Assembly (NCBI GenBank): GCA_018896875.1
Contig: JAHILT010000017.1
Span: forward strand, 1-52,494
Direction: 5' to 3'
Source: Patescibacteria group bacterium
Lineage (GTDB): Bacteria; Patescibacteriota; Minisyncoccia; UBA6257; 02-FULL-45-10c
Length of the DNA stretch: 52,494 nucleotides
Shown: piece after piece, positions 16,806 through 47,329 of the stretch
How the letters are laid out: every line of letters begins with the position of its first letter
Numbering within the stretch: position 1 is the stretch's first letter
Notes under the pieces: generated by a model
What the model was told of the DNA's origin: nothing
The model's database searches: none
Seen by the model: only the letters and a program-made list of their open reading frames with translations
Made by a program: the position numbers and the translations under genes

Positions 16806-18176
16806 TTATTCTTTGTTAATTATTTCTTTTATAGCTAATACTTTTTGATTTAAATTTTGGTTTTTACTTATTTCTTCAGATATTTTATTATAAGCGTAAA
16901 TTGCAGTTGTATGATCTCTTTTTCCTAGTTTTTCACCTATGGATGGATAAGACATGCCTAAAATATCTCGCAAAAGATACATAGCAATTTGTCTAGGTTC
17001 GGCTACGCTGTTTTTTCTACAACGCCCAGTAATATCATTAGTATTAATATGGAAATAATCAATTACGGCCCTAATTACCTGAGAATCACTGACGTTTTTA
17101 GTTGGCTGTTGGATTGTTTTATTAATAATATCTTCAACTTCTTTAGCGCTAAGTTCTGTATTTTTAGTATTTTGAATAAATAGAATCTTATTTAAAACAC
17201 CCTCTAATTCTCTTAGATTTTTTTGAACCTTAGAAGCAATTATATCAATTATATTATCAGACAAATTTAAATTTTTATCTTGAAGTTTGGTTTTTAAAAT
17301 AGCTGTTCTTAATTCGTAGTCTGGATATCCAATATCTACTATCATACCTCCCTCAAATCGTGATCTTAATCTTTCTTCTAGTGTTGGAATAAATCTTGGT
17401 GGTCTGTCAGAAGAAATAATAATTTGTTTATTATTTTCATATAGAGCATTAAATGTATGGAAAAATTCTTCTTCGGTTTTTTCTTTGCCACCAATAAATT
17501 GAATATCATCAATAATTAAAACATCAACAAAACGGTATCGTTCTTTAATGTCTTCCATTCGTTTGTTTCTAATCCCCCAAATTACTTCACTAGTAAATTT
17601 TTCTGAAGAAACATATTTTACTTTTACCTTATCATCATATTCTTTTTTTATTTCACTTCCTAATGCTTGAATAAGATGTGTTTTTCCAAGACCTACTCCT
17701 CCATAAACAAAAAGAGGATTATATTTTTTACCAACATCTTTTATAACAGCTGAAGCGGCAGCATGAGCCAATTCATTAGACGAACCAACAATAAAAGAAT
17801 CAAGAGTGTATCGTGGATTTAAATTAGTCTCTGGGTCAACTCGTAATTCTGCAAATGATTGTTGGAATTTTATATCAGGCTCAATTACTTTTTTCTGTTT
17901 ATTCTTAATATTTTGATTATTAGAAGAGTTTTTGTTCTCTACAATATATTCTATTTTTTTTGTTGAACTATCAAGGTTTCTTAAAACAGAAAGAATAATT
18001 TTATTATATTTATTCTCCACCCACTCTTTAGCAAAGTTATTAGGGAAACTTACGAAAACAACACCATCTTCTTTGTGAGTTAGTTGGCTATTTTTTAGCC
18101 ATGTAAGAAAATTAGGGCGAGATATTTGTAACTCTACTTCACTAAGTGTTGATTGCCAAAGGTGTTCTAAATTCAT
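16806..18176 (-). CDS. dnaA: Chromosomal replication initiator DnaA
   Basis: NPLFVYGGVGLGKTHLIQALG Walker A, DVLIIDDIQFIGGKEKTEEEFFHTFN, C-terminal GKRDHTTAIYAYNKI signature. Confidence 0.98.
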   Translation of the reverse strand: MNLEHLWQSTLSEVELQISRPNFLTWLKNSQLTHKEDGVVFVSFPNNFAKEWVENKYNKIILSVLRNLDSSTKKIEYIVENKNSSNNQNIKNKQKKVIEPDIKFQQSFAELRVDPETNLNPRYTLDSFIVGSSNELAHAAASAVIKDVGKKYNPLFVYGGVGLGKTHLIQALGSEIKKEYDDKVKVKYVSSEKFTSEVIWGIRNKRMEDIKERYRFVDVLIIDDIQFIGGKEKTEEEFFHTFNALYENNKQIIISSDRPPRFIPTLEERLRSRFEGGMIVDIGYPDYELRTAILKTKLQDKNLNLSDNIIDIIASKVQKNLRELEGVLNKILFIQNTKNTELSAKEVEDIINKTIQQPTKNVSDSQVIRAVIDYFHINTNDITGRCRKNSVAEPRQIAMYLLRDILGMSYPSIGEKLGKRDHTTAIYAYNKISEEISKNQNLNQKVLAIKEIINKE

Positions 18177-45272: not shown

Positions 45273-45659
45273 CTATAAAATATTTAAAATATTTTCTGCG
45301 CCTTTATATTTTCGCTGATAAACTCTTATTTTTTTATGTTTTGTTAGAGTTGAATATTTTCTTTTTCTGTTGGGATTTTTACTATATCTTCTACCTTCTA
45401 AGATATCTTTTGTCTTACTTATTGTATTCGCCGAAACATTTAGAATTTTTTTAATATCACAATATTTTTTATTTTGATTTAATAGTTTCATTGTCGCTAT
45501 TCTTCGAAAAATAATACATTTTTCATAATCAGTTAAAAACTTATCAAAGAACTTATTTAAACTATCAATAGAATTAATATTTTTGAATTCTCTTAATAAT
45601 TCATTAATAATTTCTTTCTCAATAAACTTATCTAGTTTTTTATTAATTGAAGACTTCAT
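45273..45659 (-). CDS. TrpR/YerC-like helix-turn-helix DNA-binding protein
   Basis: FLTDYEKCIIFRRIATMKLLNQNKKYCDIKKILNVSANTISKTKDILEG; start set at ATG 45659 rather than the GTG at 45725, which lies in a palindrome. Confidence 0.75.
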   Translation of the reverse strand: MKSSINKKLDKFIEKEIINELLREFKNINSIDSLNKFFDKFLTDYEKCIIFRRIATMKLLNQNKKYCDIKKILNVSANTISKTKDILEGRRYSKNPNRKRKYSTLTKHKKIRVYQRKYKGAENILNIL

Positions 45660-45693
45660 ATTAAATTGATTGCTATTTTTTATATCAATAATA

Positions 45694-45699
45694 ATTATA
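45694..45699 (-). promoter_or_regulatory. Extended -10 (TGATATAAT on minus strand) for the TrpR-like gene
   Basis: minus strand tgtgaTATAAT, with the 45710-45743 palindrome over the -35 region. Confidence 0.6.
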
Positions 45700-45709
45700 T
45701 CACAATAAA

Positions 45710-45743
45710 CCTTACTTAGTCTCACGCGTGAGACTAAGTAAGG
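45710..45743. promoter_or_regulatory. 34 bp perfect palindrome, same core, upstream of TrpR-like gene
   Basis: ccttacttagtctcacgcgtgagactaagtaagg. Confidence 0.88.
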
Positions 45744-45902
45744 CGTTCAATGACTAAATTTTTAATAACTGATTATTATTTCATTTCTCTCTGCTTGTCT
45801 GTGTGCGTGGTCGAGAATCTAGTTTTTCTGTTTATCGTTAGAAAATTAGTAATTTATCGTTTAGGGTTTGTTTGGGCCAATTAGAAATTATTAATTAGAA
45901 AC

Positions 45903-46102
45903 CCCGCACCAGAAACTTCGCCGGGCAGTGAGAATTCAATTGCCCCCGCTTAGCGGGGGCAGTAATTGAAATAAATCACTATCTGGAAATAAAAATAGTT
46001 AAGTAATATAAAAAAGTTATATAATTATTGATTGAATTTCTACTGACCCGGTTCGTTTCGGTGCGGGACTAGTCCAGCACTGAGCCCTGCTCTAGTGCTG
46101 GG
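45903..46102. ncRNA. Candidate structured RNA or nested inverted-repeat element, strand unresolved
   Basis: cccgcacc/ggtgcggg closing stem (45903/46060), ccggg/cccgg, nested hairpin 45927-45980 (agtga, ttcaatt, gcccccgc), then hairpin 46074-46101. Confidence 0.45.
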
Positions 46103-46112
46103 TTGTTTTAGT

Positions 46113-46547
46113 CTATATATTCTCATAATGTCTTATTTCGGAATTTTTGAATAGTTCTTTAAGATTAAGATCTTTGGGATTTTGAAGGTAAATTTCTATA
46201 GCAATTAAATCTATTTGCCATCCTTTTTCTTCATCTATTAATTCTGGATGAGAATTTGCATAAAGAAGCACAGTTCGTTTTACTTTTTTAAATTTAGCTG
46301 GATTAAGATTGTTTTCTGGTGAAAAACAATCTGTGAAACATTTTTCGTTTTGTTTCACAGAAGTGTGAAACATTTTTAATGCTTTAACTTCCACAAATAC
46401 TAGAGTTTTATCCTTTTTTCTACATATAACATCTATCTCTCCCCATGGATATCGAACATTTCTTTCAATTATCTTATATTTTTTATCCACTAAGTACTGG
46501 CAAGCGATATCTTCTCCTATTTGACCTATTCTAATATGGTTTGGCAT
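46113..46547 (-). CDS. YraN/UPF0102 family endonuclease-like protein
   Basis: MPNHIRIGQIGEDIACQYLVDKKYKIIERNVRYPWGEIDVICRKKDKTLVFVEVK. Confidence 0.9.
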   Translation of the reverse strand: MPNHIRIGQIGEDIACQYLVDKKYKIIERNVRYPWGEIDVICRKKDKTLVFVEVKALKMFHTSVKQNEKCFTDCFSPENNLNPAKFKKVKRTVLLYANSHPELIDEEKGWQIDLIAIEIYLQNPKDLNLKELFKNSEIRHYENI

Positions 46548-46938
46548 AATTTTTTAATTTTAAATAATTATTTTACAAATAAGTTTAACATAAATTTATA
46601 GTGTGAGACATGTTTAATGTTTCACGAATTACATTAATTACATTTTACGTATAAGACTATACACAATGTTTGTCGTGAAACATATCGATATGTTTTTTGT
46701 ATGTTTTAAGTTATTTATGGGCAACATGGATTGTTTCACGAATTACATTAGATACATTTTATATATGAATTATTTATAATGTTTGTCGTGAAACATATTC
46801 GTGCGTCTATATAATAGAATAATACAATTTTTCCATGAATTAGATTATTAATAATTGAGTATAACTTGATGTTTCACGTTTTACATAATAATTATTTTAA
46901 GCATAAACTTGTAACCGATGTTTCACAAATTGTTTCAC
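46333..46938. repeat. Cluster of ten GTTTCAC/GTGAAAC motifs including two ~67 bp repeat units
   Basis: Motif starts: 46333, 46352, 46365, 46619, 46675, 46733, 46788, 46871, 46920, 46932; units 46618-46685 and 46732-46798. Confidence 0.85.
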
Positions 46939-46977
46939 ATTCGGCAATTTGTTTGTTATTAGCTTGCCGAATTAATT

Positions 46978-47011
46978 AAAAAGCGTGGAACATTTTTGTT
47001 CCACGCTTTTT
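46978..47011 (-). terminator. Terminator hairpin for the 47051 gene
   Basis: aaaaagcgtggaaca-tttt-tgttccacgcttttt, works on both strands. Confidence 0.8.
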
Positions 47012-47050
47012 AAGGGTTAGTTGATTAGAAAAGGTTAGGGGTAGTCTAGA

Positions 47051-47329
47051 TTAATTTTCTTCTTTCTCTATTTCTGATCTGATATATTCCATGGCTTCTT
47101 GTTCATTTTCTTTATATAATTCTATCAATTCGTTTTGTCGGTTTACAAACAAATCTCTAAATTTAGAAGCATATTTTTTTATCCAATCCTTTCTTATATC
47201 TTCTAATGATAATGATTTGTCCTGGTTTGCCATTAGGGAATGATATTCAATAACGCTTCTTTCAATTATTATAGCGTGTTCTTCCGGAGATAATTCTTTT
47301 TTTGGTTTTTTAAATTCTGGCGTTTTCAT
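47051..47329 (-). CDS. Hypothetical small charged protein
   Basis: 92 aa ORF with its own terminator; no recognised family. Confidence 0.55.
   Translation of the reverse strand: MKTPEFKKPKKELSPEEHAIIIERSVIEYHSLMANQDKSLSLEDIRKDWIKKYASKFRDLFVNRQNELIELYKENEQEAMEYIRSEIEKEEN

What the first reader, a model, noticed from the sequence alone, without database searches (positions are those of the whole stretch)
46333..46938. Ten GTTTCAC/GTGAAAC motifs in ~600 bp resembling parS half-sites
TGTTTCACG and CGTGAAACA are the half-sites of the well-known bacterial parS consensus TGTTTCACGTGAAACA (Spo0J/ParB). Ten 7-mers occur here, including two ~67 bp units (TGTTTCACGAATTACATTA...AATGTTTGTCGTGAAACATAT at 46618 and 46732) with the half-sites as inverted arms ~50 bp apart, plus direct and inverted copies near 46871-46938. 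A 7-mer should occur rarely by chance in 52 kb. Inference: divergent centromere-like locus, a regulator array upstream of yraN, or a repeat family derived from parS-like sequence. About 28 kb from dnaA, so origin-proximal. No ParB is encoded in the window.
Basis: partly seen in the sequence, partly recalled or inferred. Interest (0 to 1): 0.72.

Follow-up and report, generated by a model that had tools for sequence, protein, structure and literature searches.

The report
Diverged parS centromere cluster beside yraN
This is very probably the place where the chromosome-segregation protein ParB grips the chromosome of a tiny uncultured bacterium, built from weakened one-armed copies of the usual ParB site set at a fixed spacing next to the gene yraN, in a lineage that mostly has ParB but no recognisable ParA motor.

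Summary
Observation confirmed: 10 of the window's 11 GTTTCAC/GTGAAAC words lie in 606 bp (about 0.04 expected). They form a diverged chromosomal parS (ParB-binding) cluster. The genome (a Paceibacterota-type MAG) encodes one full-length ParB on another contig and has no perfect parS; its other near-matches look like coding DNA. In relatives the same place, beside yraN and near dnaA, holds perfect TGTTTCACGTGAAACA arrays (same-genus G003 four, G021 six, G017 five).

Three features look unusual. (1) Mismatches concentrate in one arm, at positions 6-7. (2) Within the family, 16 of 47 neighbouring sites are exactly 48-50 bp apart (null 1.3), with mostly unrelated linkers. (3) Half-site pairs (12-bp direct repeats, spaced palindromes) occur in 41 whole genomes almost only at these clusters.

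ParB carries serine at position 201, where a published survey found glycine invariant. ParA passed the cut-off in only 3 of 21 genomes searched. Most likely function: ParB loading and SMC recruitment near the origin without ParA. Binding is inferred, not shown.

The parts
46618..46633 (+). parS-like site A, TGTTTCACGAATTACA: left arm perfect, right arm keeps the outer ACA
46667..46682 (+). parS-like site B, TGTTTGTCGTGAAACA: right arm perfect, two mismatches in the left arm; 49 bp from A
   Evidence: the same variant recurs in G002, G003, G011, G018
46732..46747 (+). parS-like site C, TGTTTCACGAATTACA: left arm perfect
46780..46795 (+). parS-like site D, TGTTTGTCGTGAAACA: right arm perfect; 48 bp from C
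46870..46885 (+). parS-like site E, TGTTTCACGTTTTACA: left arm perfect, three mismatches in the right arm
46919..46939 (+). direct pair of half-sites, 12-bp period: TGTTTCACAAATTGTTTCACA
   Evidence: pattern essentially confined to this kind of locus in 41 genomes
46351..46372 (.). spaced palindrome of two half-sites, TGTTTCACAGAAGTGTGAAACA, inside the yraN coding sequence; also scores as terminator-like
   Evidence: lies in a loop of YraN that varies in length
46332..46340 (-). single half-site TGTTTCACA inside yraN
46113..46547 (-). yraN (UPF0102), the conserved neighbour of the cluster
   Evidence: Pfam PF02021 E 2.9e-18; relatives
47051..47329 (-). 92-aa gene of unknown function on the other side of the cluster; homologue at the same place in G003
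   Evidence: 43% identity, E 6e-22; no family match
16806..18176 (-). dnaA, origin marker about 28 kb away

Best explanation
The locus is the origin-proximal ParB-binding region (parS cluster) of this Paceibacterota-type chromosome, in a diverged form. The genome's single ParB is inferred to load at five asymmetric parS sites (A-E). Each keeps one perfect arm (TGTTTCACG) and an outer TGT/ACA in the other arm, and two pairs are set 48-49 bp apart. Nearby half-sites are inferred to add local ParB retention. ParB would then spread by its CTP clamp mechanism and recruit the SMC-like condensin to the origin region. Because no ParA was detected in this genome, segregation would depend on SMC rather than on a ParA gradient, as in Streptococcus pneumoniae. 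Shown here: sequences, positions, conservation, spacing, presence of ParB and of an SMC-like protein, failure to detect ParA. Inferred: binding, clamp spreading, SMC loading. The confidence given is for 'parS cluster used by ParB'; for SMC loading without ParA I would say about 0.5.
For: Perfect parS arrays in the same yraN-side place in relatives, including same-genus G003 with the same flanking 92-aa gene and tRNA. One ParB with N, HTH and C domains, conserved DNA-contact residues and close solved ParB/Spo0J relatives. No dispersion of the motif in the genome. All five TGTTTCACG arms are followed by a far arm ending ACA, and in relatives the far arm is conserved at its outer positions. 48-50 bp spacing far above random placement. 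dnaA proximity. Published precedent: P. aeruginosa ParB binds sites with one perfect arm and two changes in the other better than other two-mismatch sites (PMC4368675), binds half-parS GTTTCAC (PMC10419367), and asymmetric parS12J is bound by its ParB (PMC5450999). S. pneumoniae has ParB-parS without ParA (PMC7022226). SMC-like protein present.
Against: No binding data. This genome has no site with fewer than two mismatches. The assembly is fragmented (89 contigs, 97% complete), so perfect sites could be missing. ScpA/ScpB were not searched. The SMC-like protein is short (726 aa), no hinge domain was matched, and it is below the NCBIfam cut-off. Several distant relatives with ParB have no recognisable site near yraN.
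Confidence: 0.86

Rival explanations
1. Relict parS: the array descends from one with perfect sites, but ParB binding here is weak or lost and the sites are drifting.
For: No perfect site in G000 or G002, while G003 of the same genus still has four.
Against: Changes are not random: they concentrate at arm positions 6-7 and in one arm; the same variant TGTTTGTCGTGAAACA recurs in other genera and in another family; ParB is intact.
Confidence: 0.1
2. Operator array: a transcription regulator of yraN or of the 92-aa gene binds the repeats.
For: The array lies in the intergenic region upstream of yraN; ParB-like proteins can also affect nearby genes.
Against: Relatives have the canonical parS sequence here, with array length and layout varying widely; G003 sites extend past the 92-aa gene to both sides of the tRNA.
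Confidence: 0.03
3. RNA element: the inverted copies form a structured transcript or terminators.
For: Both strands fold better than shuffles (z -3.9 and -3.2); 46351-46372 looks terminator-like.
Against: Both strands fold well, as any DNA inverted repeat would; no Rfam match over threshold except the tRNA; the layout is not conserved among relatives, whose sites are loopless palindromes.
Confidence: 0.01
4. Dispersed repeat or small mobile palindromic element derived from parS-like sequence.
For: The two units are near-duplicates, and a spaced palindrome sits in a length-variable loop of YraN.
Against: Not dispersed: the words concentrate at this locus and the composite patterns almost only at such loci in 41 genomes. 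Linkers between sites are mostly unrelated.
Confidence: 0.01

Closest known systems
Chromosomal parS clusters of Spo0J/ParB systems (B. subtilis, C. crescentus, P. aeruginosa)
   Same: Same 16-bp palindrome in relatives, origin-proximal, a chromosomal-type ParB in the genome.
   Different: Here every site has only one perfect arm; changes fall at arm positions 6-7, whereas PMC5450999 names positions 5 and 1 as the usual degenerate ones; tight 48-50 bp spacing; parB is not beside the sites.
ParA-less ParB-parS of Streptococcus pneumoniae
   Same: Orphan parB, parS near the origin, no ParA (PMC7022226).
   Different: S. pneumoniae has four separate near-perfect sites; here a dense asymmetric array beside yraN.
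sopC of plasmid F (tandem 43-bp repeats, one ParB site each)
   Same: Evenly spaced ParB sites in one short array; works alike at most.
   Different: Plasmid system; different site sequence; here the linkers are mostly unrelated, so the spacing is not only repeat length. The 43-bp repeat is known to me and named in a reference title.
parS12J of Ralstonia pickettii 12J
   Same: Asymmetric parS, two changes in one arm, repeated and maintained; bound through the better arm (PMC5450999).
   Different: Sits upstream of its own parAB operon on an integrated plasmid; unrelated host.
half-parS sites of Pseudomonas aeruginosa
   Same: Same heptamer GTTTCAC (PMC10419367).
   Different: There scattered over the whole genome; here concentrated at the parS cluster, as 12-bp direct pairs and spaced palindromes.

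Membership tests
chromosomal parS cluster | Sites matching TGTTTCACGTGAAACA, clustered near the origin | tested here: inconclusive
   In this genome the best sites have two mismatches; relatives have perfect sites at the same place. About 28 kb from dnaA.
chromosomal parS cluster | A ParB with N, HTH and C domains and parS-type specificity residues in the genome | tested here: met
   ParB_N, HTH_ParB, ParB_C all over cut-off; Q162, GKSR170-173, N178, R204 kept, S at 201.
chromosomal parS cluster | ParB binds the sites | not testable with these tools
   Needs EMSA, interferometry or ChIP/DAP-seq.
complete ParABS system | ParA ATPase, usually beside parB | tested here: not met
   No PF13614 match in G000 and over the cut-off in only 3 of 21 genomes, though found in all 14 controls; none beside parB. 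One model in a 97% complete assembly, so absence is not proven.
SMC recruitment by ParB-parS | SMC-ScpAB present | tested here: inconclusive
   SMC-like protein of 726 aa; ScpA/ScpB not searched.
Noc-NBS nucleoid occlusion | Q173/K179/K184/R201 and site ATTTCCCGGGAAAT | tested here: not met
   Residues are R173, S179, N184, S201; score below the Noc cut-off.

The most novel reading that the evidence does not exclude
A chromosomal centromere with its own binding code: a ParB with S201 (a position reported as invariant glycine) reading parS sites in which only one arm is exact and the other is free at positions 6-7, packed at a fixed 48-50 bp pitch and flanked by half-site pairs (12-bp direct repeats, spaced palindromes), working without ParA.
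Probability: 0.35. Interest if true: 0.72.

Novelty: new variant of a known kind. Interest (0 to 1): 0.55.

Why it matters
Searches of the open-access library for parS/ParB with Patescibacteria or candidate phyla radiation found no paper devoted to it, so how these reduced cells mark their origin appears little described. The locus gives concrete, testable DNA: natural asymmetric parS sites, a ParB with an unusual residue at a specificity position, and a fixed spacing that could report how neighbouring ParB clamps pack. It would also test whether a ParA-less ParB-parS system is the norm in this order.

Tried and rejected
Other G000 parS near-matches (C16, C58, C71) were read and look like coding DNA. 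RNA element: folds better than shuffles on both strands, but no Rfam match and no conserved layout. Noc site: specificity residues do not fit. TIGR array: considered because that paper mentions ParB and Patescibacteria; it links tasA loci with parB-like genes, and nothing else here fits. Exact 48-50 bp spacing as a class-wide rule: rejected, since perfect pairs outside family f1 and G017 ranged from 35 to 61 bp. S201 as the sole cause of asymmetry: not supported, because G017 has S201 with five perfect sites. parS-yraN linkage as a rule of the whole class: rejected, many more distant yraN loci have no site within 4 kb.

Full report
OBSERVATION. Ten of eleven GTTTCAC/GTGAAAC words of the window lie at 46333-46938. 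The expectation for that interval is about 0.04 (Poisson P about 8e-21). The repeats described at 46618 and 46732 are real. Aligned to parS they resolve into five 16-bp sites: TGTTTCACGAATTACA (46618), TGTTTGTCGTGAAACA (46667), TGTTTCACGAATTACA (46732), TGTTTGTCGTGAAACA (46780) and TGTTTCACGTTTTACA (46870), with steps of 49, 65, 48 and 90 bp. Additional half-sites are a direct pair at 46919-46939, a spaced palindrome at 46351-46372 and a single copy at 46332-46340. The last two are inside yraN, in a loop whose length varies among YraN proteins.

SAME PLACE IN RELATIVES. The genome (790 kb, 89 contigs) is not named; the closest named records from the yraN search are Paceibacterota/Parcubacteria-type MAGs. 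It has no perfect parS. Same-genus G003 has four perfect and five two-mismatch sites; eight of these nine lie in a 0.9-kb stretch beside yraN, around the homologue of the window's 92-aa gene (43% identity) and a tRNA like the window's tRNA-Val. G002, same genus, has four two-mismatch sites and, like the window, no perfect one. Perfect sites beside yraN occur in G021 (six), G017 (five), G025, G032, G037, G039, G031 and G023. Where yraN and dnaA share a contig they are 3 to 92 kb apart. The association fades with distance: of 80 yraN loci across the class many have no site within 4 kb.

THE PROTEIN SIDE. G000 encodes one ParB (C19) with N-terminal, HTH and C-terminal domains and no parA beside it. 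PF13614 finds ParA over the cut-off in only 3 of 21 genomes (G016, G017, G018) while ringing in all 14 control genomes; ParB is found in 19 of 21. An SMC-like protein of 726 aa is present. I mapped Caulobacter positions through the ungapped HTH segment; the Caulobacter sequence was from memory and agrees with the residue numbers given in PMC7383237. Q162, K171, S172, R173, N178 and R204 are as in ParB, with S at 201 in 16 of 18 ParBs mapped, T in G019 and G in G015. That paper calls R173 and G201 absolutely conserved in the ParB orthologues it surveyed. In its selections S or T at 201 was tolerated in parS-specific variants and frequent in dual-specificity ones. G017 has S201 with perfect sites, so S201 alone does not explain the asymmetry.

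SITE ANATOMY. Over 103 sites with at most 3 mismatches, mismatches occur at arm position 6 in 24% and position 7 in 19%, and at the other six positions in 0.5-5%. Of 26 two-mismatch sites, 23 have both changes in one arm (P 1e-5 against random distribution over arms). The base facing residue 201 in the published structures corresponds to arm position 7, so S201 relaxing that contact is a reasonable but untested idea. Related genomes are not independent, so these probabilities are indicative only.

SPACING. In 20 yraN-side clusters, 21 of 79 neighbouring spacings up to 150 bp are 48-50 bp and none is 47 or 51. In family f1, 16 of 47 spacings are (null mean 1.3, maximum 7 in 20000; best 3-bp bin 16 against a null maximum of 10 in 5000). 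Thirteen of the 21 linkers are below 65% identity to each other, so tandem duplication explains only part. Outside f1 and G017, perfect pairs vary from 35 to 61 bp; L172 (FK_Sedi_B_Bin.401) has four further 48-bp steps.

HALF-SITE PAIRS. In 41 whole genomes TGTTTCAC-N4-TGTTTCAC occurs ten times in nine genomes with no reversed-control match. Seven are beside yraN, two are in the parS-like cluster of G027, where no yraN was found, and one is at a contig start in G024, whose yraN contig ends close by. TGTTTCAC-N6..9-GTGAAACA occurs at 13 places in eleven genomes, with one reversed-control match in another genome. Twelve are in yraN-side loci and the thirteenth is beside a parS-like site in G001. 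What these pairs do is unknown; half-parS binding in P. aeruginosa is the nearest precedent.

MECHANISM. Best reading: ParB loads at the asymmetric sites, spreads as a CTP clamp, and recruits SMC near the origin without ParA. Binding and every later step are inferred. Literature precedents for one-armed and half parS binding are in PMC4368675, PMC5450999 and PMC10419367, and for a ParA-less system in PMC7022226.

RIVALS. A relict array is the main rival; the patterned, recurrent changes and intact ParB speak against it. Operator, RNA and dispersed-repeat readings do not account for canonical parS arrays at the same place in relatives.

NOVELTY. Known kind (parS cluster), new variant. No open-access paper held combines parS, ParB and Patescibacteria; the one hit with 'candidate phyla radiation' uses that term once, and the two hits are on other subjects. 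Subscription papers and preprints were not searchable.

Noticed in passing
window 45900-46080: Very stable RNA-like fold (z -9.2) between the TrpR-like gene and yraN, with no Rfam match. The outer stem CCGGGCAGTGARAATTC...GAATTTCTACTGACCCGG also occurs in G003 (L065 about 680-755), apparently with A-U to G-C changes on both sides of the stem (read by eye): possibly an undescribed structured RNA.
   Followed up: partly
window 45711-45742: Perfect 32-bp palindrome CTTACTTAGTCTCACGCGTGAGACTAAGTAAG at the 5' end of a TrpR-like gene (45273-45725, PF01371); could be an operator or a terminator.
   Followed up: partly
window 46976-47013: Perfect inverted repeat TTAAAAAGCGTGGAACA/TGTTCCACGCTTTTTAA downstream of the 92-aa gene; its arms contain the Pseudomonas-type half-site TGTTCCACG pointing outward.
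   Followed up: no
L207:723-2903: SMC-like protein of this genome is only 726 aa; head domains match but no hinge domain was matched. Relatives show similar lengths.
   Followed up: partly
L096:1122-1267 and L098:7327-7419: G003 and G001 have a second small group of half-sites and parS-like sites next to a LysM/M23-type peptidase gene, about 10 kb from yraN in G003; absent at the matching place in the window.
   Followed up: partly
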